A model generated the notes under the pieces. It was not told the DNA's origin, made no database searches, and saw only the letters and a list, made by a program, of their open reading frames with translations. A DNA stretch of 64,000 bases from Candidatus Symbiopectobacterium endolongispinus. GTDB taxonomy: Bacteria; Pseudomonadota; Gammaproteobacteria; Enterobacterales; Enterobacteriaceae. Both the position numbers and the translations under genes were made by a program. Where the stretch lies: positions 186,001-250,000 of the forward strand of contig NZ_JAFJYB010000005.1 of NCBI RefSeq assembly GCF_018777385.1, in the 5' to 3' direction. Below are positions 20,546-61,902 of this stretch, piece after piece (position 1 is the first letter of the stretch; each line of letters starts with the position of its first letter).

Positions 20546-22001
20546 TTACGCTTGAGGAATTGGCGGAACCACGCCATCGGGAATCGGGTTCTCAAACGGT
20601 GTAACGCTCAATTTCTCGGCCAGTTCCGCTTTTGCTTGTGCCACCAGCGCCGGGTTCTGTAGCAAATCCACGGTTAATGACGCCATGGCTTCGGCTGCAT
20701 AGGCGGTGCCTTTGTGCGCCGCGGGCGCTTTACCCTGCGCTACCAACTGCCAGGAGTGGGCCGGGGTGCCGATGGCGTAGGTGGCGGCACGGATTTGTAC
20801 AGTAGGAACTACCCAGCTTACCGTACCGACGTCGGTAGAACCGATAAAGCTATCGTCTGGGCTGTAAAGCGGATAGATACCTTCATGCAGCGATTCGCCT
20901 GCTTTAGGTTTTACGCCAAAACGCGCGTAGGAATTGGCAATATCTTCTGCACTCATGGCAGTTTGGAATTTGGCGGCAAAAGCGCGATCCGCATCATCGA
21001 ACTGGATGGGGTCAAGCGCCAGCAGATGTTCATGCATGCGCTGTTCCAACGGTGCGTTACCCAGTAAGTTGGCATCGCCGCTGATCACTTCCCAACTCAC
21101 TTCTGTTTCGGTCATCAGCGCTGCACCTTGTGCGATTTTCTTCACACGTTTCACTAACTGGTGAAGTTCAGGTAACTGACGCGTCCGTACCAGATAGCGT
21201 ACCGTTGCGTTGGCCTGAACGACGTTAGGTGCATGACCACCGCTGCCGGTGATGGCGTAGTGCACGCGCGCCGATGACGGCATGTGTTCGCGCATGTAGT
21301 TAACGCCAACGTTCATCAGCTCTACGGCATCCAGCGTACTGCGTCCCAGATGTGGGCTGCTGGCGGCGTGCGAAGCGCGGCCTTTGAAATAAAAGTTCAG
21401 TTCGTTGCAAGCCAGAGAATCCGGGCTGTTAACGCCGGTAAAGGTGGCTAGGTGCCAGCAGATGGCAATATCCACATCGTCAAATACGCCCTCTTTGACC
21501 ATAAAACCTTTGGAGGAGCCGCCCTCTTCCGCCGGACAACCGTAAAAGCGCACGGTGCCGGATAACTGATGCTGTTGCAGGTAATCTTTTACCGCAGTGG
21601 CGGCCTGCAATGCGGCGGTGCCAAGCAAATTGTGGCCGCAGCCGTGACCGTTACCACCCGCATCGATAGGGCAAGGCTCAGCGACGCCCGCTTGCTGGCT
21701 CAGGCCCGGCAACGCATCGTATTCACCCAGTAGGGCAATCACCGGTTTACCGGAACCAAATTAGCCCAGCAAGGCGGTTGGCATCCCGGCAATACCCGTT
21801 GTCAGGCGAAAGCCTTCCTGCTTGAGTACCGCTTCATGCAGTGCAGCAGAGCGGGTTTCTTCATAGTTGAGTTCCGGTACATCCCAGATGCTATCGCTGA
21901 GCGCGGTGAACTGCGGATTTTTCGCGGCAATCAGTTCGCGCAGGGCGCTAACGGTGTGTGTCTATGGCGGGCAAGGTGTGTTGTTCTGATGGCGAAGTCA
22001 T
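20546..22001 (-). pseudogene. M20 amidohydrolase (AbgB-like), copy in arm 1, broken
   Basis: M20-family metallo-amidohydrolase resembling p-aminobenzoyl-glutamate hydrolase subunit B (GEYDALPGLSQQAG, GNGHGCGHNLLG, CPAEEGGSSKGF, PHLGRSTLDAVELM). The start ATG at 22001 follows AGGAGCACC. A frameshift in a CA-rich stretch near 21965 ends the first frame after about 15 codons. A TAA at 21762-21764 interrupts ALLG-x-FGSGKPVIALLGEYD. The remaining 398 codons to 20546 are intact. Last gene of the transporter operon, so it likely hydrolysed the imported compound. Both lesions recur in arm 2. The 3' third (20546-21066) lies outside the repeat and exists only here. Confidence 0.85.
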
Positions 22002-22110
22002 GGATCAGGTGCTCCTGCGGTGATAACCGTGAATACGGTGGGAAATAAAGAAGACGTGGCGTCAATCAGACGCCACGTTCGTGGTTCACATTAGGTTCGC
22101 GAGAAGGCGA

Positions 22111-22977
22111 TCAGAGCGGGGTGGTATCCATGCCAAACCATTTTTCACTCAGCTTCTTGATGGTACCGTCTGCTTTAGCCTGGTCGATGGCTTTATCAAA
22201 CATGGCTTTCAGCTCAGGATCGCTTTTACGCAGGCCGATGGATGAGCCGCTGCCCAAAATGCCGCCGATAAACTGCGGGCCAGCCATCACGATTTCGCCG
22301 TTTGATTTGTCAGCGGTATTTTTCATGTAAGGCGCTGAGCCGATAACCAGATCGACGCGACCGGCTTTCAGATCCAGATCGTGCTCTTGCATGGTTTTGT
22401 ATTCGCGTACGGTCATCATGCCTTTGAAGTATTTATCCAACAGCGTGCTGGCGATCGAGGCAGACTGAACGCCAATGGTTTTGCCTTTAAGCAGCGGGCG
22501 CAATTTTTCAACTTCAGCGATGGCAGTGACTTCATCTTTCTCATTGAGGGAGAAACGGGTGCCCAGATCCGGCAGCGATGCCAGCGGGCTGGATTTCAGC
22601 ACGGCAAAGGTTTGGCCCGCCTGCGTGTAGGGCTGGCTGAAATCGATCACTTCACGGCGCTTCGGCGTGGCAGACATGCCGGAGATGATGGCATCAAACT
22701 TACCGGCGTTCAGCGCCGGAATGCTGCTGACAAACGGCTGCACCATGATCTCGCATTTTACTTTCATGTTGTCGCACAGCACTTTGTACAGCTCAATTTC
22801 CATGCCATCCAGCGTACCGTCTGGCTTGGTGAAGTTGTACGGGTGATAAGCACCTTCAGTGGCGATGCGCACGGTGCTCCAGGTTTTACCGGCTTCTGCC
22901 GCAGCATTGAATGACGTAGAGAGTGCGCCAGCCAGACAAAGCGCATAGGCGGCGGCAGCGAGTTTGGTTTTTATCAT
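22111..22977 (-). CDS. Amino-acid ABC transporter periplasmic binding protein (arm 1)
   Basis: Family 3 (HisJ/ArtJ/GlnH-like) solute-binding protein, 288 residues: signal peptide MIKTKLAAAAYALCLAGALS..., then VRIATEGAYHPYNFTKPDGTLDGMEIELYKVLCDNM and FDAIISGMSATPKRREVIDFSQPY. The family binds polar or basic amino acids or opines; the ligand is unknown here. Intact and identical in protein to the arm 2 copy, while the ATPase encoded just upstream in the operon is broken in both, so it may now serve another transporter or none. Confidence 0.9.
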   Translation of the reverse strand: MIKTKLAAAAYALCLAGALSTSFNAAAEAGKTWSTVRIATEGAYHPYNFTKPDGTLDGMEIELYKVLCDNMKVKCEIMVQPFVSSIPALNAGKFDAIISGMSATPKRREVIDFSQPYTQAGQTFAVLKSSPLASLPDLGTRFSLNEKDEVTAIAEVEKLRPLLKGKTIGVQSASIASTLLDKYFKGMMTVREYKTMQEHDLDLKAGRVDLVIGSAPYMKNTADKSNGEIVMAGPQFIGGILGSGSSIGLRKSDPELKAMFDKAIDQAKADGTIKKLSEKWFGMDTTPL

Positions 22978-23045
22978 TGAGGTATCTCCTGGTGGTTGTC
23001 TGTTGTGTTCTTAAGACTAGCATTGTGTTGATAAACGCAGTTCTG

Positions 23046-23810
23046 TTACCAACTGGCAATAAACTGGCGGAAACGAGCTGACTGGCTGGCAGTAAACATC
23101 TGTTCCGGCGTGCCTTGTTATTCGATCTCACCCTGATGCAGGAACACCACGCGGTTAGAGACTTCACGCGCAAAGTCCATTTCATGGGTTACGACCAGCA
23201 TGGTCATACCTTCATAGGCTAACTGGCGCATCACGCGCAGCACTTCTCCGACCAACTCCGGATCCAGCGCTGATGTGGGTTCATCAAACAGCATCACCTT
23301 GGGTGACATGGCCAGCGCACATGCAATCGCGGCACGCTGTTGCTGCCCACCAGAAATGTGGGAAGGGTAGTAATGACGTTTATCCGCCAGCCCGACCTTC
23401 TCAAGCAACTGCTCTGCATGCTCTTTGGCGTCCTGCGGGGCGCGTTTCAGTACGTGGATCGGCGCTTCAATCACGTTTTCCAGTACGGTTTTGTGCGACC
23501 ACAGATTGAAGTTTTGAAACACCATGCCAAGCTGGGTACGGATACGGTCGATCTGTTTCGCGCTGGCTGGACGGTTTTGACCTTGGCGATTCACTTTCAT
23601 CGCGATGGTTTCGCCGCCCACAATAATTTCGCCATGATCGGGGATTTCAAGCAGGTTGGTACAGCGCAGCAGGGTGGATTTGCCCGAGCCGGAAGAACCC
23701 AGAATCAAGACGACCTCGCCATGACTGGCTTAAAACGAGATCCCTTTCAGGACTTCCAGTGAGCCGAAACGCTTGTGAATGTTGCGCAGGCTGATAGCGG
23801 CGGTACTCAT
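23046..23810 (-). pseudogene. Amino-acid ABC transporter ATPase (arm 1), two stops
   Basis: HisP/GlnQ-like ATPase, 255 codons from ATG 23810. TAA near 23730 interrupts LKGISF-x-ASHGEVV just before Walker A ([12 protein letters not shown]). TAA at 23118-23120 interrupts HQGEIE-x-QGTPEQMF near the C terminus (Glu in relatives). Signature [14 protein letters not shown] and Walker [15 protein letters not shown] are intact. The first stop prevents any product unless translation restarts inside. Both stops are shared with arm 2, so they are older than the duplication. Confidence 0.88.
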
Positions 23811-24535
23811 GATGGGTTTCCTTTCATATTCTTAACTTCAGCCAGCGACTGCGGTGCGCGCAGATACGGCGTCATACGGTGTTCGACAAAAGCCAGCAGG
23901 CTGGTAAGCACCAAATTGATCAGCAGATAAATGGCTCCCGCTACCAGAAACACTTCCAGTGCGCGGTAGGTTTCCGCAATCAAGCGTGCCGCGATGCCGG
24001 TGATTTCCATCAGCGTGATGATGGACGCAAGCGAGGTGGATTTGATCATGGAGATCAATTCGTTGCCGTAGGCAGGCAGGACCTGGCGAATGGCGAGCGG
24101 AAACACGATGCGGGTAAATATTTTCCAGGATGGCATGCCACAGGCGCGCGCCGCTTCGATCTGCCCGGCGGGCACCGATAGCAAACCACCACGAATGATT
24201 TCGCTGGCGTAAGCGCCGGTGCAAAGCGTCAATGACAGTAGCGCACACCAATATGGTTCGCGCAGTATTGGCCACAGCACGCTTTCTCGCACCCAACTGA
24301 ATTGCCCTAAACCGTAGTAGATAAGGAACAACTGCACCAGTAGCGGTGTGCCACGAAAGAACAGCACATACAGGCGTGCGACCGATTGCAGCAGCCGGTT
24401 ACCAGAAAGTTGCATCGCGGCCAGCGTCAAGGCTAAAAAGAAGCCGAGCAGCACCGATCCCACCGCGAGTTGGAGTGTGAGCGGTATGCCGGGAATAATC
24501 TCCAGGAAGGTTTCGTAGAAAAAAGTAGCGTCCAT
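23807..24535 (-). CDS. Amino-acid ABC transporter permease, HisM type (arm 1)
   Basis: 242 residues, with membrane helices and the EAA loop SVPAGQIEAARACGMPSWKIFTRIVFPLAIRQVLPAYGNELISMIKSTS. Overlaps the ATPase start by 4 bp and the other permease stop by 1 bp, showing translational coupling. Intact. One residue differs from arm 2 (SVLWPILREP here, SVLRPILREP there). Confidence 0.9.
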   Translation of the reverse strand: MDATFFYETFLEIIPGIPLTLQLAVGSVLLGFFLALTLAAMQLSGNRLLQSVARLYVLFFRGTPLLVQLFLIYYGLGQFSWVRESVLWPILREPYWCALLSLTLCTGAYASEIIRGGLLSVPAGQIEAARACGMPSWKIFTRIVFPLAIRQVLPAYGNELISMIKSTSLASIITLMEITGIAARLIAETYRALEVFLVAGAIYLLINLVLTSLLAFVEHRMTPYLRAPQSLAEVKNMKGNPS

Positions 24536-25252
24536 TACCGTCTAACACCTCGCGAATAGTGTACCTCCGCGCGGCGCATCAGCCAGCCGGAAAAAATCGA
24601 AATCACCAGATAAATCATGGTGGCAGCCATGTAGAAATCAAATGGTTTGCCTGTGGAACCTGCGCCGATCTGGGACTGGGTCAACAGTTCTGCCACGCCG
24701 GTTACCGACACTAGCGCCGAGGCTTTCAGCACCAGTTGCCAGACGTTGCCGAACGCGGGAATGGCATGGCGCAGCAGCAGCGGAATAATAATGCGGCGCA
24801 GGCGCAGCAGGATAGGCATACCGCAGGCTTTAGCGGCTTCTATCTCGCCTTTGGCTACGGCGTAGAATGCGCCGCGAAACACTTCTGTTTGCTGTGCCCC
24901 TGAGGATATGCCGACGGCAATGACCCCGGCGATATAGCCGGGAAAACCGATAAAGCCGCTGTGGCCAAACAGGCTTGCCAGCAGCGTTAGTGCAGAGCTA
25001 CCGCCAAAGTAGAGCAGGAAAATAATCAGCAGATCGGGAATGCCGCGTGTCACGGTGGTGTAGCATTCCGCCACAAAGCGAAGTGGCCGATTACCAGCTA
25101 TTTTTGACCAGGCACCGAGGGTGCCGATGAGTGCGCCTAATAAAAAACCGCCTAATGCCAATGCCATGGTCATTCCAGTCCCCATCAGCAGCCAATCTTC
25201 CCCAGCCATTCTCACCAAAACTGATGAGTTGCCAAAATGTCATTTGTTCCAC
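24535..25252 (-). pseudogene. Amino-acid ABC transporter permease, HisQ type (arm 1), 5' frameshift
   Basis: The best start is GTG at 25252 (VEQMTFWQLISFGENGWG), six bases after GGAG. One extra A in GGCTGGGGAAGATTGG shifts the frame after about 18 codons; the remaining frame (DWLLMGTGMTMALALGG... with the EAA loop KGEIEAAKACGMPILLRLRRIIIP) is intact to TAA at 24535. Internal ATG/GTG codons could give a protein lacking only the N-terminal tail, so some function is possible. The same insertion is in arm 2. The Pro-Leu stretch here is short (PLLL). Confidence 0.7.
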
Positions 25253-25361
25253 GTATTACTCCAATTTTCTTTTTGCAGGCATAGCTCCGCGCGCGGCCTG
25301 AACGCTGCTGGTGACCCTTGACCGGACTCTCTCGCATTAAGCAGAGAACGTGGTAATCAAA

Positions 25362-25376
25362 GCAATATTCAGGCCA
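25362..25376 (-). promoter_or_regulatory. Sigma-54 promoter of the ABC transporter operon (arm 1)
   Basis: On the minus strand TGGCCTGAATATTGC carries GG and GC separated by exactly 10 bases, matching the -24/-12 consensus TGGCAC-N5-TTGCW. It lies about 110 bp upstream of the HisQ-type permease start and downstream of two NtrC-like sites. Confidence 0.65.
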
Positions 25377-25500
25377 CGTTTTTATTATTGTTGAAACGAT
25401 TAATTATGCATATAAATTGCTTATTAATCAGTATTTCATTTTATTGTTTTGGTGACTACTCACACTTTATGGGGCGGTAGCAGCTGAAAACGCCGTATTG

Positions 25501-25538
25501 GCACCAATATGGTGCATTAAAATGCACTGAATTAGTGC
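25501..25538. promoter_or_regulatory. Tandem NtrC-like enhancer sites (arm 1)
   Basis: Two palindromes, GCACCAATATGGTGC (25501-25515) and GCACTGAATTAGTGC (25524-25538), match the NtrC consensus TGCACY-N5-GGTGCA and are spaced 23 bp centre to centre. They lie about 150-170 bp upstream of the predicted sigma-54 start, a normal enhancer distance. Indicates nitrogen-limitation control. The rest of 25253-25978 holds only AT-rich leader sequence between the two divergent transcripts. Confidence 0.65.
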
Positions 25539-25978
25539 GATGTGTGATTTTGGTGCGGTGTTCGCGCCTGGCTGTTACATGGTTAGCCTCTCGCGCAGGC
25601 TTACCGTCTCGACCATGATCGTCAAACTGGAGTGGTTGGCCGTTGCGCAGCACACCAAAAGTAGCGGCATTATCCTCGCATATTGTGCGGGTAATCCGAA
25701 CCGTTGGTGATGTTGTTCACAGGCTTATGGGCACTTGCACAAATATTTGCGCCGGATTTTCTGCATTTGAAAGAAATTGCCTAATGACTCACCAGGTTGT
25801 AACACCAATAATTACAAATAATAAAACGATATTTTTATTTAATTAATACATCATTTCTTTTGTGATCGCGGTCTCAGTCGCACTGGCTGGGTAGCGATAG
25901 TACAAATCGGGTTTGTCGCTCGCCGTCGGCCTGAATGTTGTTTTCTCTATGTTATTGAATTTTAAGGTAGGTAATCGC

Positions 25979-27250
25979 GTGAAAATTGAATCCATTTATG
26001 TCACCGTTTTTACGTATCCCACTCGTCGCGTGTCCGACAGTGCGGGACATTCGCATCCAGGAGAAGAGAATCAGGCCAAGATGGCCCTCTTGACGCTGAC
26101 CACCGACGATGGACATCAGGGCTATGCATTTGCACCACCAGAAGTGGTTCGTCCCCATATTATCAACGCGTTCTTCCGCAAGGTGCTGATCGGGCAGAAC
26201 CCGTTTGACAGAGAACGTCTGTGGCAAGATCTGGTGCATTGGCAGCGCGGCAGCGCCAACCAACTGACCGATCGCGCCATCTCTATCGTGGAATCTGCGC
26301 TGTGGGATCTGCAAGGCCGCTTCCTGAATATGCCAGTACACAAACTGCTGGGCGGTTTTCGTGAAAAAGTGCCAGCTTACGGCAGCACCATGTGCGGCGA
26401 TGAGCTGGAAGGCGGCCTTTAGACGCCGGAAGAGTACGGCCAGTTTGCCGAGAAACTGGTGGCGCGCGGCTATAAGGCGATCAAGCTGCACACCTGGATG
26501 CCGCCGGTATCCTTCGCACCCAGCCCGCAGATGGACGTTAAAGCCTGTGCTGCCGTGCGTGAAGCGGTGCGCTACCTCATCGATTACGACGGTATCAACA
26601 AGACCGTGATGCCAGGCTATGGTTTCTACCACCAGCGCCCGATTCAGGCGGGAATGGACGCCACGCTGCCTAACCCCGGTTACAAGCTGGACGTGCCGAA
26701 GGCCAAGGCGCTGCTGGCGGAAGCGGGTTATCCGAACGGCTTTGAAACCACGCTGCGGGTGCTGTCCGATCAACCTTTCCTCAACCTGGCGACGTCGGTG
26801 CAATCCACTCTGGCGCAAGCCGGTATTCGAGCCAAGATCATTTCCGGCACCGGTAATCAGGTTTATGGCGCGATGCGCGATCGTAAATTCGATATGCTGG
26901 TCGGACTCGGTGGCGGCGGGGTTGATCCCCATCCGCACTCCAGCCTGCGCTCAGTGGTGTATAACCCGGATAACAGCGATGAAGCCAAACTCACCAACTT
27001 CCAGGGGTGGAGAACCTCTTTCTACGATGCGCAACTGAACGAGATGATCGATCAGGCGCTGCTGGAGAAAGATCCCGCCAGGCAGAAGCAGCGCTATGCC
27101 GAGATACAGGACCGCTATGAGGCGCTTTATCCGGCCATCATTCCTGTCTCGCAAATGGTTGATTCCGTGGTGCAACGCAAAGATGTTGTAGATTTTGTAT
27201 CACATCCGTCATCGACCACCCGCTTGTATCTGGTGCACAAGCAACGCTGA
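25979..27250 (+). pseudogene. Enolase-superfamily (mandelate racemase-like) gene fused to peptide-binding protein, arm 1
   Basis: GTG 25979 (VKIESIYVTVFTYPTRR) after AAGGTAGG begins a mandelate-racemase-type protein: N-terminal capping domain, then a TAG at 26420-26422, then ARGYKAIKLHTWM with the KxH catalytic pair. Near 26570 it joins in frame, at VREAVRYLIDYDG, to the C-terminal half of a family 5 peptide-binding protein ending DFVSHPSSTTRLYLVHKQR. So a deletion removed the racemase C terminus, the intergenic region and the binding-protein N terminus. Neither parent domain is complete and the stop precedes the junction. From 26459 a 264-codon frame remains open across the fusion. The binding protein once belonged to the dpp/opp-type operon now at 52-56 kb. 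Confidence 0.85.
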
Positions 27251-27383
27251 AGCCTGAGTAAAGCGTGGGGGGCGTTTCCCCTCACGCCTTCATCCATTGA
27301 CGCTCAGCAACCTGCGTGAGGGAAACGGCACGCTGGCAGAGGTCACCTTCCCGCCGCTGCTTTCCTGACGAGGCATCATAAAA

Positions 27384-27410
27384 AAAGCCGCGGGTTACCC
27401 CACGGCCTAC
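27384..27410 (-). terminator. Terminator downstream of fkpA
   Basis: On the minus strand GCCGTGGG-GTAA-CCCGCGGC followed by a run of seven T. The T-G wobble in the stem is stable only in this direction, supporting termination of fkpA transcripts. The gene-free stretch 27251-27554 otherwise holds only REP-like copy 2. Confidence 0.7.
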
Positions 27411-27435
27411 GTGACTGACAAACTGCCTTAACGCT

Positions 27436-27514
27436 GTCATTCCCGTGCAAGCGCGAATCTCTCTCACGCTAAACGCGCACCCTCTGTACCGGGTCCCCGG
27501 CCTACGCCGGGGAC
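27436..27514 (+). repeat. REP-like two-hairpin element, copy 2
   Basis: GTCATTCCCGTGCAAGCGCGAAT (imperfect palindrome) followed after about 33 bp by GTCCCCGG-CCTACG-CCGGGGAC (27493-27514). Same orientation as the copy at 39783, opposite to that at 7171. Confidence 0.7.
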
Positions 27515-27554
27515 GAAGAGATAAGGATGGATGTTGTCAGTTAGCCACTACGGC

Positions 27555-28364
27555 TTACTTTGCGCTTTTCTCGGCAGCAGGTTTTTCTGCTTTAGCAGCC
27601 GGTTTAGCATCAGCGTCTGCCTTGATATCCAGCAGCTCCACTTCAAACACCAGCGTAGAGTTCGCCGGAATACCCGGAACGCCATTTTCGCCGTAAGCTA
27701 ACTCTGGCGGAATAACCAGTTTGATTTTCCCGCCTTTTTTAACCTGCTTCAGCCCTTCAGTCCAGCCTGGGATAACGCCGTCAAGACGGAAGGAGAGCGG
27801 TTCGCCACGTTTGTAAGAGTTATCAAACTCGCTACCGTCAACCAGCGTACCTTTGTAGTTAACCACTACGGTATCGCTCTCTTTCGGCGCTGCGCCCGTA
27901 CCCTCTTTTTCTACCTGATACAGCAGGCCAGATTCCGTTTTCTTCACGCCTTTTTCTTTGGCAAATGCATCACGGAATTTGGTGCCTTTTTCTGCGCTTT
28001 CTTTAGCATCCTGCTTCATTTTCGCTTCTGCTGCGGTTTTCACGCGCGTTTCGAAACCTTGCAGGGTCTTCTCAATCTCTTCATCGCTCAGCTTGCTCTT
28101 GTCAGCGAACGCGTCCTGAACGCCGGCAATCAACTGGTCTTTATTCAGCTTAATGCCCAGTTTTTCTTGCTCTTTCAGGGAATTATCCATGTAACGCCCC
28201 AAGGAAGCCCCCAGCGCATAAGCGGCAGCATCCTCATCGCTCTTGAATTTTGCCGCTGTGGCCGCATCGGACGCTTTGGTCGCTTCTGCTGCCATTACCA
28301 GGTTAGCATTCAGCGTCAGTGCCATCGTCGTCGCTAACAGCGTTACTTTAAATAGTGATCTCAT
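27555..28364 (-). CDS. fkpA: Periplasmic FKBP-type peptidyl-prolyl isomerase FkpA
   Basis: Chaperone/PPIase for outer-membrane and periplasmic proteins. Signal peptide at residues 1-25 (MRSLFKVTLLATTMALTLNA...), N-terminal dimerisation helices (about 30-140) and a C-terminal FKBP domain (VVVNYKGTLVDGSEFDNSY... VIPGWTEGLKQV... IPPELAYGENGVPGIPANSTLVFEVELL). An Ala/Lys-rich tail follows. 269 residues, full length. Divergent from slyX as in E. coli. Confidence 0.95.
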   Translation of the reverse strand: MRSLFKVTLLATTMALTLNANLVMAAEATKASDAATAAKFKSDEDAAAYALGASLGRYMDNSLKEQEKLGIKLNKDQLIAGVQDAFADKSKLSDEEIEKTLQGFETRVKTAAEAKMKQDAKESAEKGTKFRDAFAKEKGVKKTESGLLYQVEKEGTGAAPKESDTVVVNYKGTLVDGSEFDNSYKRGEPLSFRLDGVIPGWTEGLKQVKKGGKIKLVIPPELAYGENGVPGIPANSTLVFEVELLDIKADADAKPAAKAEKPAAEKSAK

Positions 28365-28576
28365 CTATCATCTCCCGGTCTGGAACGACAGGCTCCAGAA
28401 ACATTAATCGTAAATGCGCGACTACTATAACTTTGGGTATCGAGACAACACAACGACACACACAACAATCCTTTGATAAAATTCCCTGAATTATTCATAG
28501 GCCCATTTTCCGACCTCGTCGATGTCCGGAGGTTCCGAATATTCGGCTAGATATGACAAAATACAGAGAAATCGTA

Positions 28577-28795
28577 ATGCCCCATACGCAACTCGAGCAA
28601 CGTATTGAAATGCTTGAAAGCAAGCTGGCTTTTCAGGAGCTCACCATTGATGAGTTGAATCAGACGGTCGTCCAACATGAATTGGAAATGGCGAAAATCC
28701 GTGAGCACCTACGCCTGTTAGTGGAAAAATTGAAAGCGACGTCCCCTTCTCTTCTCGCCCCGCAGTCCGAAGAGACGCCACCGCCACACTATTAA
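28577..28795 (+). CDS. slyX: SlyX family protein
   Basis: 72-residue coiled-coil protein of unknown function, [28 protein letters not shown]... ending in the invariant EETPPPHY. Start 28577 chosen by alignment to E. coli SlyX; eight upstream codons are not conserved. Intact. slyD would normally follow nearby but is displaced by the 29-34 kb insertion. Confidence 0.9.
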
Positions 28796-28970
28796 CCAAT
28801 AACGCTGGCGCATCCGTGCCTCTACGGTTGCGCCAGATCACATTTATCACATCATCCCAGGCGTTACACACGGTTTTCTGCACGCGAGAAAAACAAATAA
28901 CCAATTGATTTAAAACATATAAACTAAAAAACCCCTGCCGTTAGACAAAAATCCTTACAGCAAATCGCTC

Positions 28971-29019
28971 TTGACAGTCCCTTCAGAAAAACCAAAATGC
29001 AAACGTTCACGAGAACGTT
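28971..29019 (+). promoter_or_regulatory. Promoter and operator of the catabolic island, left end
   Basis: TTGACA (28971-28976), 17-bp spacer, AAAATG (28994-28999), then an 18-bp palindromic operator AACGTTCACGAGAACGTT (29002-29019) over the expected start site. The same arrangement occurs upstream of the MFS gene at 34274. This placement suits a repressor of the LacI/IclR/GntR kind; no regulator gene lies in the island. Confidence 0.6.
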
Positions 29020-29065
29020 ATTAATCGTTCTTTCATTTTTCCGATGACACTAAAAAGAGAACATA

Positions 29066-49724: not shown

Positions 49725-49733
49725 CCGATAAAA

Positions 49734-52357: not shown

Positions 52358-52571
52358 GAGAATTCCTTTTTGATCGGGGGCTACAAGAAAGCGTAACGAT
52401 TGTAAATAACCACACTCCTTAACGCTACCCTTTTACTTTTTTTACTTAAGGGTAGGCCACAACGTTACGGCCATTAAGTATAGCATACCAGTGCGGTATC
52501 GGCGACGATCGTAAAAAAGACGGGTAAATAACCCGTCTTGTTAGCACATAATGCGGCTTTTACCCGAACTA

Positions 52572-53370
52572 TTAACCCATTCGCTCCGAACGCACGACCA
52601 AATCGCGGCTGTATTGTCGGCTGGCATCCACCAGCATTGTGGTGTAGGCCGTTTTCTCCGTCGAACGCGTCAGTTCCGCCGTCTCCAGCGTTTCCAGAAT
52701 ACGGCCGTACTGCATCACCGCCACGCGGTGGCATAAATGAGCAATCACGCCCAAATCGTGCGTCACCATCAGGTAGGTCAGGTTGTTCTGCTGTTGCAGT
52801 TCTGCCAGCAAATTGAGCATTTCTGCCTGCACCGACACGTCCAGCGCTGAAGTGGGTTCATCCAGCAACAGAACTCGTGGTTCGAGAATCAGCGCGCGCG
52901 ATAGCAACGCGTTGGCGCTGCCCGCCGGAAAGCTGGTGCGGGTAGCGGCGACGGAACTGGGGCCCCAGCCCCACTTTCTCCAGCAAGGTATCAATACGCC
53001 GATCGCGCTGCTCAATGCGATGGATCAGCAACGGCTCCTCCAATATGGTCTCAACCGTATGGCGTGGATGCAGCGATCCGTAGGGATCCTGAAACACCAT
53101 CTGCACCTGACGGCAGCGTGCTCTGTCAATACGGTGCGCCAGCGGTTGACCATCGATGCACAGCTCACCCTGCCAGTGGTTGAACAACCCTGCCAGACAT
53201 TTCAGCACCGTGGTTTTTCCCGAGCCCGATTCCCCCACCAAACCAAAGATTTCGCCACCGTGCACCGCCAGATTGACATCAAACAACACCTGGTTGTGCT
53301 GGTTCCCCTGACCAAAAGATAGGTTGAGGTTTTTCACCTCGATCATCGCCGCGGTATTTTGTGCGCCCAT
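52572..53370 (-). pseudogene. Peptide ABC transporter ATPase (DppF/OppF type), frameshifted
   Basis: Second ATPase of the peptide transporter. Start ATG 53370 after AAGGAG. Walker A GESGSGKTTVLK and signature [15 protein letters not shown] are in the first frame. A GC dinucleotide is missing in the repeat AGCGCGCGCG (52892-52901), and [26 protein letters not shown] with Walker B continues in the next frame to 52572. Classic slippage in a GC repeat. Confidence 0.88.
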
Positions 53371-53379
53371 AGTCACTCC

Positions 53380-54258
53380 TTATTCACTCAGCCAGTCTGG
53401 ATCGCGCTGCATGACCGGCAGACGCACACGAGGATGATCGATGTCCGGCAACGCATTGAGCAGTCCACGCGTGTAAGGATGCTGCGCGTTATCGAGATCG
53501 CACGCCGCGATGGACTCCACGACGCGTCCGGCGTACATCACCAGCACCCGGTCGCAGAAGCTGCGCACCAGATTGATATCGTGGCTGATAAAGATCAGCC
53601 CCAATCCGCGCTCCGACACCAAATCATCCAGCATCGAAAGCACCTGTAAACGCACCGACACATCAAGCGCCGAGGTTGGCTCGTCGGCGATGACGATTTC
53701 CGGCTCAGTGATCAACATCATGGCGATCATGATGCGCTGTCCCTGACCGCAGGAGACTTCGTGCGGATAAGGTGCATACACGCGTTCCGACTGGCGAATG
53801 CGTACCACATCCAGCATCGCCATGACTTTCTCTTTCGCCACGCGCTCTGGCACCTTGTGGTGCGCCAGATAGGCTTCAGCAATCTGATCGCCAACACATA
53901 CCACCGGATTCAGCGAATACTTAGGATCTTGCATGATCATGGAAATACGCTTACCGCGGATCTGGCGCATCTGTGCTTCAGAAATATTGAGCAAGTCAGT
54001 CTGGCCGAAGCGCAGTATGTCGGCCATTACCCGTGCGCTGCGCGGGTGCAGATGCAGCAGCGCACGCCCGACCGTTGATTTACCCGAGCCGGATTCACCG
54101 ACTATCGCTAGCTTCTCGCAGCCCAGGTTAAAGGAGACGCCGCGCACAGCATCTGTCACTGCGCCGTGGTTCATGAAGCTCACCTTGAGGTTTTCCACCT
54201 CCAGCAGCGGCGCGCCCTGAGTTGCACCCTTATTCGGTGCGAGGATCGAGGATGTCAC
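53380..54258 (-). CDS. Peptide ABC transporter ATPase (DppD/OppD type)
   Basis: First ATPase, 292 codons from GTG 54258 (SD GGAG), overlapping the permease end. Walker A GESGSGKST, Walker [16 protein letters not shown]-loop ISHDINLV and the C-terminal QHPYTRGLL oligopeptide motif are present. The ABC signature, normally LSGGMGQR, is VSCGQGQR: the first signature Gly is Cys, which should weaken ATP hydrolysis. No stop or frameshift. Confidence 0.82.
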   Translation of the reverse strand: MTSSILAPNKGATQGAPLLEVENLKVSFMNHGAVTDAVRGVSFNLGCEKLAIVGESGSGKSTVGRALLHLHPRSARVMADILRFGQTDLLNISEAQMRQIRGKRISMIMQDPKYSLNPVVCVGDQIAEAYLAHHKVPERVAKEKVMAMLDVVRIRQSERVYAPYPHEVSCGQGQRIMIAMMLITEPEIVIADEPTSALDVSVRLQVLSMLDDLVSERGLGLIFISHDINLVRSFCDRVLVMYAGRVVESIAACDLDNAQHPYTRGLLNALPDIDHPRVRLPVMQRDPDWLSE

Positions 54259-55135
54259 GTAGGCCGTCTCCAAGAAAGTTAAACGCCAGGCTGTTCATCA
54301 GAATAGCCAACCCAGGAATGGTGACTAACCACCAGCACTCCATCATGTAGTGACGACCGGCAGAGATCATGGCCCCCCATTCAGGATCGGGCGGTTGAGC
54401 ACCCAATCCCAAGAAGCCAAGCCCAGCAGCGGTCAAAATGATGCCCGCCATGTTCATGGTGATACGAATAATCACTGAAGGCAGACACAACGGCACAATG
54501 TGATACACCAGAATGCGCAGCGACGATGCGCCTTGCAGTTTTACCGCAGAAACGAAATCCGCCTGACGCAGTGACAGCGTTTCAGCACGAGCCAGACGTG
54601 CGATAGGCGGCCAGGCAGTGAGGGTAATGGCAATCACCACATGCTCTAACCCCGGCCCCAAGGCGGCTACAAACGCCAGTGCCAGCACCAGACTGGGGAA
54701 GGAGATAAAGATATCGGTGATGCGCATCAGGATGGTATCGACGATGCCGCCGTAGTAGCCCGCTACCACGGCGAGCATCAAGCCGATCGGACCAACGGTT
54801 ACCGACACCAGCGCCACAATGTACAGCGTGATGCGTGAGCCATACACCAGACGGCTATACACATCGCGCCCAAACTCATCGGTACCAAACCAATGGGTTG
54901 CCCCCGGCGCTTGCAGAGCATTTGCCAGGTCTTGTACTAATGGATCGTGCGTTGCCAGCCAGGGCGCGAAAATGGCGATGACAATCAGCGACAGCACAAT
55001 CAGCGAACCAATGGCCGTCAGTGGATTTTTCGCCAGCAGGCGCAGGAAATTGAACAGACGCGCGCCACGCACTCGAATTCGCCCATTTTTGGCTGCCGGC
55101 AAGGAGCCGATTACCGGTTCGGAAGACATACTCAT
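54230..55135 (-). CDS. Peptide ABC transporter permease (DppC/OppC type)
   Basis: 301 residues: N-terminal cytoplasmic tail, first helix (NPLTAIGSLIVLSLIVIAIFAPWLA), then four to five helices with the EAA loop RLARAETLSLRQADFVSAVKLQGASSLRILVYHIVPLCLPSVI. C-terminal FLGDGLRDILDPRTE is typical. Intact; overlaps both neighbours, as in a coupled operon. Confidence 0.9.
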   Translation of the reverse strand: MSMSSEPVIGSLPAAKNGRIRVRGARLFNFLRLLAKNPLTAIGSLIVLSLIVIAIFAPWLATHDPLVQDLANALQAPGATHWFGTDEFGRDVYSRLVYGSRITLYIVALVSVTVGPIGLMLAVVAGYYGGIVDTILMRITDIFISFPSLVLALAFVAALGPGLEHVVIAITLTAWPPIARLARAETLSLRQADFVSAVKLQGASSLRILVYHIVPLCLPSVIIRITMNMAGIILTAAGLGFLGLGAQPPDPEWGAMISAGRHYMMECWWLVTIPGLAILMNSLAFNFLGDGLRDILDPRTE

Positions 55136-56155
55136 GCGCGAGTCCTCGGATCGAAGATTTGATACAACATATCGGAGAGCAGGTTAAGGGTGACGAAAAT
55201 CAGCCCCACCAGCAGCACGCAGCCCATCACCGCATTCATATCTCCCAGCAGCAGGCTGCCCGTCAGATAGGAACCAAAGCCCGGCCAGGAGAACACGGTT
55301 TCAATCAGCACCGCCCCCTCCAGCAGTGAGCCATACGCCAGCGCGACTACCGTCAGCAGTTGCACCAAAATATTGCGAAACGCATGCGCCCAAATCACCC
55401 GAAACTCAGACAGTCCTTTGACCTGTGCGGTGATGATGTACTCTTGCGACAGTTGTGCCAGCATAAAGCTGCGCGTCATACGGCTGATATAGGCCAGCGA
55501 ATGGAAGCCAAGAATGGTGGCAGGCAACACCAGGTGGTTCAGAGCACTAAAGAAAACCGCCCACTCGCGCGCCAGTAAGGAATCCACCAGCAGTAAGCCG
55601 GTGCGGTTTTCCACCATGCCGTCCCACGCCATATCTACGCGCCCTGCGCCACCGACCCAGTTGAGCCAGGCGTAAAACACCAATAGCCCCATCATGCCGA
55701 CCCAGAAAATCGGCGTGGAGTAACCCGCCAGGCTGATAAAGCGTACGATATAGTTCGCCAGCTTGCCGCGCCGCCGCCATCACGCCGAGCGACACACCCA
55801 TCCAGGCACCGACGATAATCGCCATCGTTGCCAGTTCCACCGTTGCAGGAAATACACGGATAATGTCATACACTACCGGACGGCCGGTGAGCATCGCATT
55901 GCCCAAATCGCCGTGCAGCAATGAATTGAAGTAGATACCGAATTGAACATACGGCGGCTTATCCAGGCCTAGCTGCTGATAGGTACTTTGGTCAGCATCC
56001 TGACCGACGATCGCCAATACCGGATCGATCGGCATTACCCGACCAATAATGAAGGTCAGAATCAACAACCCAAACAGCGTGAAGGCAACCTGTAACAACC
56101 GCTTGGCTACGCGATAGGGTAACGCCACCGGTTTGAGCCAATCAGAGAAAACCAT
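55132..56155 (-). pseudogene. Peptide ABC transporter permease (DppB/OppB type), frameshifted
   Basis: Start ATG 56155 (MVFSDWLKPVALPYRVAKRLLQ), 17 bp inside the boundary of repeat arm 2. First helix LLQVAFTLFGLLILTFIIGRV and the conserved GDLGNAMLTGRPVVYDI are present. Near 55770-55782, in a GCG/CGG-rich stretch after GVSLGVMAA, the frame is lost; YIVRFISLAGYSTPIFWVGMMGLL and the EAA loop to ILFDPRTRA-type end continue in another frame. Its cognate binding protein gene is truncated at the arm junction. Confidence 0.87.
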
Positions 56156-56957
56156 GTTCTTTCTCCCAGTCCAGCACCCGCAGCGTGTTTTCAAAGCCGT
56201 TCGGATAACCCGCTTCCGCCAGCAGCGCCTTGGCCTTCGGCACGTCCAGCTTGTAACCGGGGTTAGGCAGCGTGGCGTCCATTCCCGCCTGAATCGGGCG
56301 CTGGTGGTAGAAACCATAGCCTGGCATCACGGTCTTGTTGATACCGTCGTAATCGATGAGGTAGCGCACCGCTTCACGCACGGCAGCACAGGCTTTAACG
56401 TCCATCTGCGGGCTGGGTGCGAAGGATACCGGCGGCATCCAGGTGTGCAGCTTGATCGCCTTATAGCCGCGCGCCACCAGTTTCTCGGCAAACTGGCCGT
56501 ACTCTTCCGGCGTCTAAAGGCCGCCTTCCAGCTCATCGCCGCACATGGTGCTGCCGTAAGCTGGCACTTTTTCACGAAAACCGCCCAGCAGTTTGTGTAC
56601 TGGCATATTCAGGAAGCGGCCTTGCAGATCCCACAGCGCAGATTCCACGATAGAGATGGCGCGATCGGTCAGTTGGTTGGCGCTGCCGCGCTGCCAATGC
56701 ACCAGATCTTGCCACAGACGTTCTCTGTCAAACGGGTTCTGCCCGATCAGCACCTTGCGGAAGAACGCGTTGATAATATGGGGACGAACCACTTCTGGTG
56801 GTGCAAATGCATAGCCCTGATGTCCATCGTCGGTGGTCAGCGTCAAGAGGGCCATCTTGGCCTGATTCTCTTCTCCTGGATGCGAATGTCCCGCACTGTC
56901 GGACACGCGACGAGTGGGATACGTAAAAACGGTGACATAAATGGATTCAATTTTCAC
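56156..56957 (-). pseudogene. Racemase/peptide-binding-protein fusion, arm 2 copy, truncated
   Basis: Same fusion as at 25979-27250: GTG 56957, TAG at 56516-56518, in-frame junction near 56368. Here the binding-protein part stops at the arm boundary: after GYPNGFENTLRVL only LDWEKEHGFL-type junk follows before a stop next to the permease start. The C-terminal 165 residues present in arm 1 are missing. This copy sits directly upstream of the peptide permease, where the binding-protein gene belongs. Confidence 0.85.
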
Positions 56958-57397
56958 GCGATTACCTACCTTAAAATTCAATAACATAGAGAAAACAACA
57001 TTCAGGCCGACGGCGAGCGACAAACCCGATTTGTACTATCGCTACCCAGCCAGTGCGACTGAGACCGCGATCACAAAAGAAATGATGTATTAATTAAATA
57101 AAAATATCGTTTTATTATTTGTAATTATTGGTGTTACAACCTGGTGAGTCATTAGGCAATTTCTTTCAAATGCAGAAAATCCGGCGCAAATATTTGTGCA
57201 AGTGCCCATAAGCCTGTGAACAACATCACCAACGGTTCGGATTACCCGCACAATATGCGAGGATAATGCCGCTACTTTTGGTGTGCTGCGCAACGGCCAA
57301 CCACTCCAGTTTGACGATCATGGTCGAGACGGTAAGCCTGCGCGAGAGGCTAACCATGTAACAGCCAGGCGCGAACACCGCACCAAAATCACACATC

Positions 57398-57435
57398 GCA
57401 CTAATTCAGTGCATTTTAATGCACCATATTGGTGC
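57398..57435. promoter_or_regulatory. Tandem NtrC-like enhancer sites (arm 2)
   Basis: GCACTAATTCAGTGC (57398-57412) and GCACCATATTGGTGC (57421-57435), identical to the arm 1 pair. Stretch 56958-57683 otherwise holds only AT-rich divergent leader sequence. Confidence 0.65.
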
Positions 57436-57559
57436 CAATACGGTGTTTTCAGCTGCTACCGCCCCCTAAAGTGTGAGTAGTCACCAAAACAATAAAATGA
57501 AATACTGATTAATAAGCAATTTATATGCATAATTAATCGTTTCAACAATAATAAAAACG

Positions 57560-57574
57560 TGGCCTGAATATTGC
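57560..57574 (+). promoter_or_regulatory. Sigma-54 promoter (arm 2)
   Basis: TGGCCTGAATATTGC with GG-N10-GC spacing, about 110 bp before the permease start, as in arm 1. Confidence 0.65.
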
Positions 57575-57683
57575 TTTGATTACCACGTTCTCTGCTTAAT
57601 GCGAGAGAGTCCGGTCAAGGGTCACCAGCAGCGTTCAGGCCGCGCGCGGAGCTATGCCTGCAAAAAGAAAATTGGAGTAATAC

Positions 57684-58434
57684 GTGGAACAAATGACATT
57701 TTGGCAACTCATCAGTTTTGGTGAGAATGGCTGGGGAAGATTGGCTGCTGATGGGGACTGGAATGACCATGGCATTGGCATTAGGCGGTTTTTTATTAGG
57801 CGCACTCATCGGCACCCTCGGTGCCTGGTCAAAAATAGCTGGTAATCGGCCACTTCGCTTTGTGGCGGAATGCTACACCACCGTGACACGCGGCATTCCC
57901 GATCTGCTGATTATTTTCCTGCTCTACTTTGGCGGTAGCTCTGCACTAACGCTGCTGGCAAGCCTGTTTGGCCACAGCGGCTTTATCGGTTTTCCCGGCT
58001 ATATCGCCGGGGTCATTGCCGTCGGCATATCCTCAGGGGCACAGCAAACAGAAGTGTTTCGCGGCGCATTCTACGCCGTAGCCAAAGGCGAGATAGAAGC
58101 CGCTAAAGCCTGCGGTATGCCTATCCTGCTGCGCCTGCGCCGCATTATTATTCCGCTGCCGCTGCCGCTGCCGCTGCCGCTGCCGCTGCCGCTGCTGCGC
58201 CATGCCATTCCCGCGTTCGGCAACGTCTGGCAACTGGTGCTGAAAGCCTCGGCGCTAGTGTCGGTAACCGGCGTGGCAGAACTGTTGACCCAGTCCCAGA
58301 TCGGCGCAGGTTCCACAGGCAAACCATTTGATTTCTACATGGCTGCCACCATGATTTATCTGGTGATTTCGATTTTTTCCGGCTGGCTGATGCGCCGCGC
58401 GGAGGTACACTATTCGCGAGGTGTTAGACGGTAA
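57684..58434 (+). pseudogene. Amino-acid ABC permease, HisQ type (arm 2), frameshift plus Pro-Leu expansion
   Basis: Same +1 A frameshift after GENGWG as arm 1, so a product would need an internal start such as ATG 57730. In addition the codons at 58153-58197 read (Pro-Leu)7-Leu, made of seven CCGCTG units, against Pro-Leu-Leu-Leu in arm 1: 11 extra residues directly after the EAA loop. This keeps the frame but lengthens a membrane-proximal segment. Confidence 0.75.
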
Positions 58435-59162
58435 TGGACGCTACTTTTTTCTACGAAACCTTCCTGGAGATTATTCCCGGCATACCGCTCACACTCCAAC
58501 TCGCGGTGGGATCGGTGCTGCTCGGCTTCTTTTTAGCCTTGACGCTGGCCGCGATGCAACTTTCTGGTAACCGGCTGCTGCAATCGGTCGCACGCCTGTA
58601 TGTGCTGTTCTTTCGTGGCACACCGCTACTGGTGCAGTTGTTCCTTATCTACTACGGTTTAGGGCAATTCAGTTGGGTGCGAGAAAGCGTGCTGCGGCCA
58701 ATACTGCGCGAACCATATTGGTGTGCGCTACTGTCATTGACGCTTTGCACCGGCGCTTACGCCAGCGAAATCATTCGTGGTGGTTTGCTATCGGTGCCCG
58801 CCGGGCAGATCGAAGCGGCGCGCGCCTGTGGCATGCCATCCTGGAAAATATTTACCCGCATCGTGTTTCCGCTCGCCATTCGCCAGGTCCTGCCTGCCTA
58901 CGGCAACGAATTGATCTCCATGATCAAATCCACCTCGCTTGCGTCCATCATCACGCTGATGGAAATCACCGGCATCGCGGCACGCTTGATTGCGGAAACC
59001 TACCGCGCACTGGAAGTGTTTCTGGTAGCGGGAGCCATTTATCTGCTGATCAATTTGGTGCTTACCAGCCTGCTGGCTTTTGTCGAACACCGTATGACGC
59101 CGTATCTGCGCGCACCGCAGTCGCTGGCTGAAGTTAAGAATATGAAAGGAAACCCATCATGA
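58434..59162 (+). CDS. Amino-acid ABC transporter permease, HisM type (arm 2)
   Basis: 242 residues, intact, same as the arm 1 copy except for Trp to Arg in SVLRPILREP. Overlaps its neighbours by 1 and 4 bp. Confidence 0.9.
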   Translation: MDATFFYETFLEIIPGIPLTLQLAVGSVLLGFFLALTLAAMQLSGNRLLQSVARLYVLFFRGTPLLVQLFLIYYGLGQFSWVRESVLRPILREPYWCALLSLTLCTGAYASEIIRGGLLSVPAGQIEAARACGMPSWKIFTRIVFPLAIRQVLPAYGNELISMIKSTSLASIITLMEITGIAARLIAETYRALEVFLVAGAIYLLINLVLTSLLAFVEHRMTPYLRAPQSLAEVKNMKGNPS

Positions 59163-59923
59163 GTACCGCCGCTATCAGCCTGCGCAACATTCACAAGCGT
59201 TTCGGCTCACTGGAAGTCCTGAAAGGGATCTCGTTTTAAGACAGTCATGGCGAGGTCGTCTCGATTCTGGGTTCTTCCGGCTCGGGCAAATCCACCCTGC
59301 TGCGCTGTACCAACCTGCTTGAAATCCCCGATCATGGCGAAATTATTGTGGGCGGCGAAACCATCGCGATGAAAGTGAATCGCCAAGGTCAAAACCGTCC
59401 AGCCAGCTCGAAACAGATCGACCGTATCCGTACCCAGCTTGGCATGGTGTTTCAAAACTTCAATCTGTGGTCGCACAAAACCGTACTGGAAAACGTGATT
59501 GAAGCGCCGATCCACGTACTGAAACGCGCCCCGCAGGACGCCAAAGAGCATGCAGAGCAGTTGCTTGAGAAGGTCGGGCTGGCGGATAAACGTCATTACT
59601 ACCCTTCCCACATTTCTGGTGGGCAGCAACAGCGTGCCGCGATTGCATGTGCGCTGGCCATGTCACCCAAGGTGATGCTGTTTGATGAACCCACATCAGC
59701 GCTGGATCCGGAGTTGGTCGGAGAAGTGCTGCGCGTGATGCGCCAGTTAGCCTATGAAGGTATGACCATGCTGGTCGTAACCCATGAAATGGACTTTGCG
59801 CGTGAAGTCTCTAACCGCGTGGTGTTCCTGCATCAGGGTGAGATCGAATAACAAGGCACGCCGGAACAGATGTTTACTGCCAGCCAGTCAGCTCGTTTCC
59901 GCCAGTTTATTGCCAGTTGGTAA
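59159..59923 (+). pseudogene. Amino-acid ABC transporter ATPase (arm 2), two stops
   Basis: Same two TAA codons as in arm 1 (in LKGISF-x-DSHGEVV near 59237 and HQGEIE-x-QGTPEQ at 59849-59851). Extra changes found only here, such as VVSILG for VVLILG and SSKQID for SAKQID, show slow divergence of the copies. Walker A, signature and Walker B motifs remain readable. Confidence 0.88.
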
Positions 59924-59991
59924 CAGAACTGCGTTTATCAACACAATGCTAGTCTTAAGAACACAACAGACAACCACCAGGAGATACCTCA

Positions 59992-60858
59992 ATGATAAAA
60001 ACCAAACTCGCTGCCGCCGCCTATGCGCTTTGTCTGGCTGGCGCACTCTCTACGTCATTCAATGCTGCGGCAGAAGCCGGTAAAACCTGGAGCACCGTGC
60101 GCATCGCCACTGAAGGTGCTTATCACCCGTACAACTTCACCAAGCCAGACGGTACGCTGGATGGCATGGAAATTGAGCTGTACAAAGTGCTGTGCGACAA
60201 CATGAAAGTAAAATGCGAGATCATGGTGCAGCCGTTTGTCAGCAGCATTCCGGCGCTGAACGCCGGTAAGTTTGATGCCATCATCTCCGGCATGTCTGCC
60301 ACGCCGAAGCGCCGTGAAGTGATCGATTTCAGCCAGCCCTACACGCAGGCGGGCCAAACCTTTGCCGTGCTGAAATCCAGCCCGCTGGCATCGCTGCCGG
60401 ATCTGGGCACCCGTTTCTCCCTCAATGAGAAAGATGAAGTCACTGCCATCGCTGAAGTTGAAAAATTGCGCCCGCTGCTTAAAGGCAAAACCATTGGCGT
60501 TCAGTCTGCCTCGATCGCCAGCACGCTGTTGGATAAATACTTCAAAGGCATGATGACCGTACGCGAATACAAAACCATGCAAGAGCACGATCTGGATCTG
60601 AAAGCCGGTCGCGTCGATCTGGTTATCGGCTCAGCGCCTTACATGAAAAATACCGCTGACAAATCAAACGGCGAAATCGTGATGGCTGGCCCGCAGTTTA
60701 TCGGCGGCATTTTGGGCAGCGGCTCATCCATCGGCCTGCGTAAAAGCGATCCTGAGCTGAAAGCCATGTTTGATAAAGCCATCGACCAGGCTAAAGCAGA
60801 CGGTACCATCAAGAAGCTGAGTGAAAAATGGTTTGGCATGGATACCACCCCGCTCTGA
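59992..60858 (+). CDS. Amino-acid ABC transporter periplasmic binding protein (arm 2)
   Basis: 288 residues, protein identical to the arm 1 copy; signal peptide and family 3 binding fold intact. Preceded by CAGGAGA. Confidence 0.9.
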   Translation: MIKTKLAAAAYALCLAGALSTSFNAAAEAGKTWSTVRIATEGAYHPYNFTKPDGTLDGMEIELYKVLCDNMKVKCEIMVQPFVSSIPALNAGKFDAIISGMSATPKRREVIDFSQPYTQAGQTFAVLKSSPLASLPDLGTRFSLNEKDEVTAIAEVEKLRPLLKGKTIGVQSASIASTLLDKYFKGMMTVREYKTMQEHDLDLKAGRVDLVIGSAPYMKNTADKSNGEIVMAGPQFIGGILGSGSSIGLRKSDPELKAMFDKAIDQAKADGTIKKLSEKWFGMDTTPL

Positions 60859-60967
60859 TCGCCTTCTCGCGAACCTAATGTGAACCACGAACGTGGCGTC
60901 TGATTGACGCCACGTCTTCTTTATTTCCCACCGTATTCACGGTTATCACCGCAGGAGCACCTGATCC

Positions 60968-61902
60968 ATGACTTCGCCATCAGAACAACACACCTTGCCC
61001 GCCATAGACACACACCGTTAGCGCCCTGCGCGAACTGATTGCCGCGAAAAATCCGCAGTTCACCGCGCTCAGCGATAGCATCTGGGATGTACCGGAACTC
61101 AACTATGAAGAAACCCGCTCTGCTGCACTGCATGAAGCGGTACTCAAGCAGGAAGGCTTTCGCCTGACAACGGGTATTGCCGGGATGCCAACCGCCTTGC
61201 TGGGCTAATTTGGTTCCGGTAAACCGGTGATTGCCCTACTGGGTGAATACGATGCGTTGCCGGGCCTGAGCCAGCAAGCGGGCGTCGCTGAGCCTTGCCC
61301 TATCGATGCGGGTGGTAACGGTCACGGCTGCGGCCACAATTTGCTTGGCACCGCCGCATTGCAGGCCGCCACTGCGGTAAAAGATTACCTGCAACAGCAT
61401 CAGTTATCCGGCACCGTGCGCTTTTACGGTTGTCCGGCGGAAGAGGGCGGCTCCTCCAAAGGTTTTATGGTCAAAGAGGGCGTATTTGACGATGTGGATA
61501 TTGCCATCTGCTGGCACCTAGCCACCTTTACCGGCGTTAACAGCCCGGATTCTCTGGCTTGCAACGAACTGAACTTTTATTTCAAAGGCCGCGCTTCGCA
61601 CGCCGCCAGCAGCCCACATCTGGGACGCAGTACGCTGGATGCCGTAGAGCTGATGAACGTTGGCGTTAACTACATGCGCGAACACATGCCGTCATCGGCG
61701 CGCGTGCACTACGCCATCACCGGCAGCGGTGGTCATGCACCTAACGTCGTTCAGGCCAACGCAACGGTACGCTATCTGGTACGGACGCGTCAGTTACCTG
61801 AACTTCACCAGTTAGTGAAACGTGTGAAGAAAATCGCACAAGGTGCAGCGCTGATGACCGAAACAGAAGTGAGTTGGGAAGTGATCAGCGGCGATGCCAA
61901 CT
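60968..61902 (+). pseudogene. M20 amidohydrolase (AbgB-like), arm 2 copy, truncated
   Basis: Same 5' frameshift (near 61012) and TAA (61206-61208) as arm 1. The gene is cut at the repeat end after [10 protein letters not shown]; the reading frame then enters antisense pmrB sequence and stops at 61964. It lacks the C-terminal 170 or so residues. Confidence 0.9.

What the first reader, a model, noticed from the sequence alone, without database searches (positions are those of the whole stretch)
21067..61902. Two near-identical 5.7-kb inverted arms bracket a 29.4-kb segment
Sequence 21067-26764 is repeated in inverted orientation at 56172-61902, with only a few single-base differences and one 33-bp indel. 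The arms are not IS elements: they carry a transporter operon, its control region and a gene fusion. Such long, near-identical inverted repeats are efficient substrates for RecA-dependent inversion, so the fkpA-ppiA block could exist in two orientations in a culture.
Basis: seen in the sequence. Interest (0 to 1): 0.88.

Follow-up and report, generated by a model that had tools for sequence, protein, structure and literature searches.

The report
Inverted duplication beside a flipped block
In the decaying genome of what is most likely a mealybug symbiont, a 6-kb stretch of already broken genes was copied backwards about 29 kb away and the block between now sits reversed; this is a known kind of accidental rearrangement, and the two copies could in principle let the block keep flipping.

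Summary
In detail: 21067-26764 recurs inverted at 56172-61902 with 7 substitutions and one 33-bp indel. The arms look like by-products, not a device. Four congeners share the order A-D-S-C (trpS side; 6.2-kb D; 29-kb ppiA-to-fkpA block S; pmrB); the window reads A-D-S'-D'-C, with S reversed and an inverted copy of D at its far end. The joints are illegitimate: two with 1 bp of overlap, one a roughly 583-bp deletion at a 10-bp repeat. pmrB was cut at one point with no base lost. The D/pmrB joint carries a 15-bp perfect hairpin, completed by a rewrite of the pmrB side seen in none of 4 congeners, which argues against an assembly artefact. Genes in D were broken before copying. The geometry is that of 'DNA duplication associated with inversion'. 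One event, or inverted insertion of D into pmrB followed by a crossover between arms, would leave the same sequence. recA, recB, recC, ruvB and ruvC have uninterrupted frames, so flipping is possible but not shown. The organism is most likely the endosymbiont Symbiopectobacterium endolongispinus.

The parts
1..21066 (+). Flank A: conserved block with aroK/aroB-like genes, dam, rpe, trpS (18527-19531) in native orientation
   Evidence: Collinear with 4 of 4 congeners, apart from small gaps; G004 compared from 5781 only. trpS by TIGR00233; the other names are read from the translations and recalled
21067..27295 (.). D, left copy (6229 bp): M20 amidohydrolase, amino-acid ABC transporter operon (binding protein, ATPase, two permeases), remnant of an enolase-type gene fused to the C-terminal part of a peptide-binding protein
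   Evidence: Collinear with 4 of 4 congeners; families; the enolase-type name is recalled
21067..26764 (+). Arm A: the part of the left D copy that is repeated
26555..26568 (+). Scar of a roughly 1.6-1.7-kb deletion at an 11-bp repeat (seen in G002), shared by both arms, so older than the duplication or homogenised since
27295..27296 (.). Joint J1: end of D joined to the former pmrB 3' part at the fkpA end of S; 1-bp overlap
   Evidence: read by eye
27296..56171 (-). S': 28.9-kb block (fkpA 27555-28364, kefB, crp, argD, pabA, ppiA 51767-52357, peptide ABC transporter) in reversed orientation
   Evidence: Reversed against 4 of 4 congeners; of 80 loci around trpS (10 kb each side, 8 cut short by contig ends), 41 hold ppiA and 0 hold fkpA at E 1e-30 and over 50% identity; names
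56172..56181 (.). Joint J2: 10-bp repeat (exact in G001) at which about 583 bp (end of the peptide-binding protein gene and the gap before the dppB-like gene) is missing
   Evidence: size worked out from the G001 and G002 coordinates
56172..61902 (-). Arm B = D': inverted copy of D
61891..61926 (+). 15-bp perfect hairpin (61891-61905 / 61912-61926) spanning joint J3; the pmrB side differs from all four congeners so as to match the D side
61902..61903 (.). Joint J3: M20 gene interior of D' joined to pmrB interior; 1-bp overlap
   Evidence: read by eye
61227..61964 (+). Chance fusion frame: truncated M20 amidohydrolase running into antisense pmrB
61805..62779 (-). pmrB (basS) sensor kinase, truncated at J3; its 3' end is now near fkpA from 27296
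   Evidence: NF008025
62776..63444 (-). pmrA response regulator, in flank C
   Evidence: NF007928
58160..58192 (+). 33-bp in-frame repeat expansion private to arm B
   Evidence: Absent from arm A and 4 of 4 congeners

Best explanation
A recent accidental rearrangement in a decaying endosymbiont chromosome. Shown: relative to its congeners, the 29-kb block between a broken amino-acid/peptide transporter locus and pmrB is reversed, and a 6.2-kb stretch from the transporter end has been copied in inverted orientation to the pmrB end, cutting pmrB at one point with no base lost. This is the geometry called DNA duplication associated with inversion. Inferred route: a break in pmrB was filled by copying D (21067 to 27295) from about 30 kb away, primed and sealed at almost no homology; the inverted copies then recombined and reversed the block. 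A single event doing both is nearly as likely. The arms have no evident evolved function, but they are a standing substrate for RecA-dependent flipping.
For: Synteny: D-S adjacency in 4 of 4 congeners; S-C adjacency in 3 of 4 (G002, G004; G003; G001 reaches a contig end in S); pmrB sequence continuous across the break in 4 of 4. Wider polarity: of 80 trpS loci, 41 hold ppiA within 10 kb and 0 hold fkpA. Joints J1 and J3 share 1 bp and J2 is at a 10-bp repeat; against G001-G003 no base of pmrB is missing and there is no target-site duplication. J3 carries a 15-bp perfect hairpin (DNA fold -23.8 kcal/mol, 0 of 200 shuffles as good), completed by a short rewrite of the pmrB side seen in none of 4 congeners. 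Both arms share inactivating lesions and 76 derived substitutions, against 2 and 4 private ones. recA, recB, recC, ruvB and ruvC frames are uninterrupted.
Against: No reads were available, so copy number and orientation rest on one assembly. A crossover between arms interconverts 'S reversed' and 'S native with D pasted inverted', so the one-step and two-step histories leave the same sequence. The 7-bp stem that J3 would have with relatives' pmrB sequence is not unusual (243, 325 and 272 of 5000 random left flanks reach it with G001, G003 and G002), so a fold-back origin for that joint is weak. The low arm divergence may reflect gene conversion rather than youth.
Confidence: 0.82

Rival explanations
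1. Single-event DDAI: inversion and inverted copying happened together (staggered breaks or sister-chromosome joining), and the arms have not recombined since.
For: Matches the published geometry (Furuta et al. 2011, recalled; passages on DDAI in PMC8963470); needs no later flip; D'-S linkage is native apart from about 583 bp.
Against: Needs breaks at both ends of D as well as in pmrB, and reuse of exactly the same pmrB point on both sides (inference); with an uninterrupted recA frame, 5.7-kb arms would be expected to recombine.
Confidence: 0.35
2. Two steps: inverted copy of D inserted in pmrB with S in native orientation, then a RecA-dependent crossover between the arms reversed S; both isomers may coexist.
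For: pmrB is cut with zero loss, as for an insertion; recombination genes have uninterrupted frames; the arms are almost identical over 5.7 kb.
Against: One step more; no isomer seen; the 7 arm differences show no clear crossover tract (a first 2494 bp without a difference has p of about 0.018 taken alone, which is not convincing for a pattern picked after the fact).
Confidence: 0.45
3. Assembly artefact: the second arm is a mis-join or a duplicated consensus.
For: Ten-contig draft; no reads seen here.
Against: Both arms carry private derived changes when polarised with congeners (2 in A, 4 in B and a 33-bp insertion; one site cannot be polarised). J3 has a change that matches across the joint. 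Six 16S genes are found and none lies within 33 kb of a known contig edge, which suggests that repeats of about rRNA-operon size were resolved; operon length was not measured.
Confidence: 0.06
4. Evolved invertible switch or transposable element.
For: Long inverted repeats around a block.
Against: No target-site duplication or terminal inverted repeats seen by eye at the copy's ends; the arm frames scanned match transporter and amidohydrolase families, no recombinase or transposase (not every frame of the window was scanned); S holds housekeeping genes; the arrangement is absent from 4 of 4 congeners.
Confidence: 0.02

Closest known systems
[quoted passage not shown] Furuta et al. 2011, Helicobacter pylori, recalled; a Thermus case in PMC8963470, passages)
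   Same: A segment from one end of an inversion is copied in inverted orientation to the other end; a gene at the breakpoint is broken
   Different: Here most likely in an insect endosymbiont, copying already broken genes; one joint hairpin appears to have been perfected afterwards; insertion followed by a flip is not excluded
Tandem inversion duplication (TID, enteric bacteria; recalled)
   Same: Inverted copies joined at little or no homology, fold-back at joints
   Different: Two separated copies, not three in tandem; would need extra deletions that end on the same pmrB base
Homologous inversion between rRNA operons or IS copies (recalled)
   Same: Long inverted repeats can recombine by RecA
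   Different: The repeats here came with the rearrangement; they are neither rRNA nor, on present evidence, IS

Membership tests
DNA duplication associated with inversion | Block reversed relative to relatives | tested here: met
   4 of 4 congeners have the other orientation; 41 of 80 trpS loci hold ppiA within 10 kb and 0 of 80 hold fkpA
DNA duplication associated with inversion | Segment at one breakpoint copied, inverted, at the other | tested here: met
   D at 21067-27295, D' at 56172-61902
DNA duplication associated with inversion | Inversion and copying in one event | tested here: inconclusive
   A crossover between arms interconverts the alternatives; no reads
Tandem inversion duplication | Three copies in alternating order, or a remnant of it | tested here: not met
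   Two long copies among the 22 matches (40 of 69 candidates scored there); pmrB parts abut with no loss
Insertion sequence / transposon | Target-site duplication, terminal inverted repeats, transposase | tested here: not met
   Ends read by eye; families of the arm frames scanned
RecA-dependent invertible segment | Long inverted repeats and genes of a RecA pathway | tested here: met
   uninterrupted recA, recB, recC, ruvB, ruvC frames; recD, ruvA, recFOR and recG not searched; activity not tested
RecA-dependent invertible segment | Both orientations present in the population | not testable with these tools
   No sequencing reads held

The most novel reading that the evidence does not exclude
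Duplications associated with inversion arise in two steps, a break filled by an inverted copy and then a crossover between the copies, and this symbiont still holds both orientations of the 29-kb block within single insects, so an accident has become a live, non-adaptive genome switch.
Probability: 0.25. Interest if true: 0.5.

Novelty: new member of a known kind. Interest (0 to 1): 0.3.

Why it matters
It is a fresh, base-resolved example of how chromosomes of recently captured symbionts break down: inverted copying at a break, loss of a two-component sensor gene at the breakpoint, and a new hairpin perfected at the joint. It also shows that long inverted repeats in such genomes can be by-products of inversion, and that a reversed block next to them need not be fixed.

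Tried and rejected
Invertible switch and IS element: rejected. Tandem inversion duplication followed by deletions: disfavoured, because both sides of pmrB end at the same base and one search lists only two long copies. Selection for extra transporter dosage: disfavoured, since the M20 and ATPase frames are interrupted in both arms while the ATPase frame is open in 4 of 4 congeners and the M20 frame in 3 of 4 (G001's is broken in its own way). Fold-back priming as the origin of J3: weak, since 243 to 325 of 5000 random flanks do as well. Gene-conversion tracts between arms: no convincing clustering of the 7 differences. A search for other large repeats was limited to contig C8 (256,538 of 4,492,448 bp), so how common such events are elsewhere in the genome is unknown. 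Of the ten paper searches, one search found 0 papers, and searches gave listings from which nothing was read further; only the listed starts of abstracts were used.

Full report
OBSERVATION. The repeat is real. 21067-26764 (5698 bp) and the reverse complement of 56172-61902 (5731 bp) align end to end with 7 substitutions and one 33-bp indel, a GCGGCA-type repeat expansion. The genome (G000, 4,492,448 bp in 10 contigs, completeness 98.1, contamination 1.99; the window is contig C8:186001-250000 of 256,538 bp) shows no third long copy: the other 20 of 22 listed matches are short (417 bp at most) at 67-94% identity, most of them in the ATPase part (40 of 69 candidates scored). Megablast finds nothing else of 150 bp or more repeated in contig C8.

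WHOSE GENOME. The assembly length equals, to the digits given, the 4.492 Mb of Symbiopectobacterium endolongispinus, an endosymbiont of the mealybug Pseudococcus longispinus with 2,679 pseudogenes, in Table 1 of PMC13345370 (passages seen). The best trpS relative is a record labelled Serratia marcescens (96%) whose contig length equals that of G004:C16; Pectobacterium and Brenneria follow at 87-89%, though Pantoea and others score as well. The M20 gene next to trpS is found in 7 of 80 trpS loci: that record, five Pectobacterium and one Brenneria, which fits the kinship given in the paper.

ANCESTRAL ORDER. BLAST of the window against stretches of four congeners (G001-G004) gives one ancestral layout: A (window 1-21066, trpS) - D (21067-27295) - S (window 56181 back to 27296: peptide ABC transporter, ppiA, pabA, argD, crp, kefB, fkpA) - C (61903 onward: pmrB, pmrA). 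D-S adjacency is present in 4 of 4; S-C adjacency in 3 of 4 (G002 and G004, G003; G001 reaches a contig end in S), and pmrB sequence is continuous across the break in 4 of 4. The window instead reads A-D-S'-D'-C. Further out, among 80 loci around trpS (10 kb each side, 8 cut short by contig ends; the best 80 of 583 relatives), ppiA is found in 41 and fkpA in 0. The reversal is therefore derived in this genome.

JOINTS. Read by eye against the relatives. J1 (27295|27296): D end to the former 3' part of pmrB, 1-bp overlap. J3 (61902|61903): M20 gene interior to pmrB interior, 1-bp overlap. Compared with G001-G003 the two pmrB parts abut with no base missing or duplicated. J2 (56172-56181, between D' and S): a 10-bp repeat, exact in G001, at which about 583 bp are missing relative to G001 and G002. 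I saw no terminal repeats and no target-site duplication.

THE HAIRPIN AT J3. 61891-61905 and 61912-61926 form a perfect 15-bp stem across the joint (DNA fold -23.8 kcal/mol against a shuffle mean of -9.23, 0 of 200 as good). With the pmrB sequence of G001, G002 or G003 the stem would be 7 bp, which random flanks reach in 243, 272 and 325 of 5000 trials, so the joint itself need not have formed by fold-back. The extension to 15 bp comes from a short multi-base change on the pmrB side that none of 4 congeners has. [quoted passage not shown] Such a change most simply needs the joint to exist first, which argues strongly that J3 is real DNA.

AGE AND STATE OF THE ARMS. With G001-G003 agreeing as outgroup over 5405 ungapped columns, 76 derived substitutions are shared by both arms, 2 are private to arm A and 4 to arm B; one of the seven differences cannot be polarised, and one of arm A's two private states recurs in G004. 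The 33-bp insertion is private to B. So about 3 of 79, or 4%, of the changes in this lineage since its split from G001 postdate the copying, unless gene conversion has reset the clock. Both arms share a 1.6-1.7-kb deletion at an 11-bp repeat, an interrupted ABC ATPase (open in 4 of 4 congeners) and an interrupted M20 gene (open in 3 of 4). The copied operon was already decaying.

MECHANISM. The geometry is that of DNA duplication associated with inversion (Furuta et al. 2011, recalled; that paper is not held; a bacterial case citing it was seen in passages). One crossover between the arms turns the window's layout into A-D-S-D'-C with S in native orientation and D simply inserted, inverted, in pmrB. 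That layout would need only one break, filled by a 6.2-kb inverted copy. I therefore slightly prefer insertion followed by a flip (0.45) to a single event (0.35), but the static sequence cannot decide. recA, recB, recC, ruvB and ruvC are present as uninterrupted frames covering their models end to end or nearly so (recD, ruvA, recFOR and recG were not searched), so flipping is possible. Six 16S genes lie inside contigs, none within 33 kb of a known edge, so the assembly probably resolved repeats of this size; the sequencing method was not seen.

VERDICT. A correct observation, an understandable but incomplete reading, and an ordinary kind of event with an instructive joint. The claim of two coexisting orientations stays open.

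Noticed in passing
38446-38489 and 39190-39233: 44-bp direct repeat, 95% identical, inside an ABC-F ATPase gene that is split into two frames (37941-38660, 38670-39632).
   Followed up: no
49760-51707: About 1.95 kb present in the window but without a match at this place in G001 and G002, and matched only at its edge in G003 and G004; nature unknown.
   Followed up: no
35440-37198: kefB is split into two overlapping frames, another pseudogene in the block.
   Followed up: no
58160-58192: In-frame (Pro-Leu)n expansion of a permease in arm B only, a young repeat expansion.
   Followed up: partly
19538-20540: About 1 kb with a RhtB-like efflux gene (19815-20453) lies between trpS and the M20 gene in the window, G001 and G002 but not in G003 and G004.
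   Followed up: no
L037 (JADMXW010000024.1): Record labelled Serratia marcescens whose trpS is 96% identical to the window's and whose contig length equals G004:C16; it appears to belong to this symbiont genus.
   Followed up: partly
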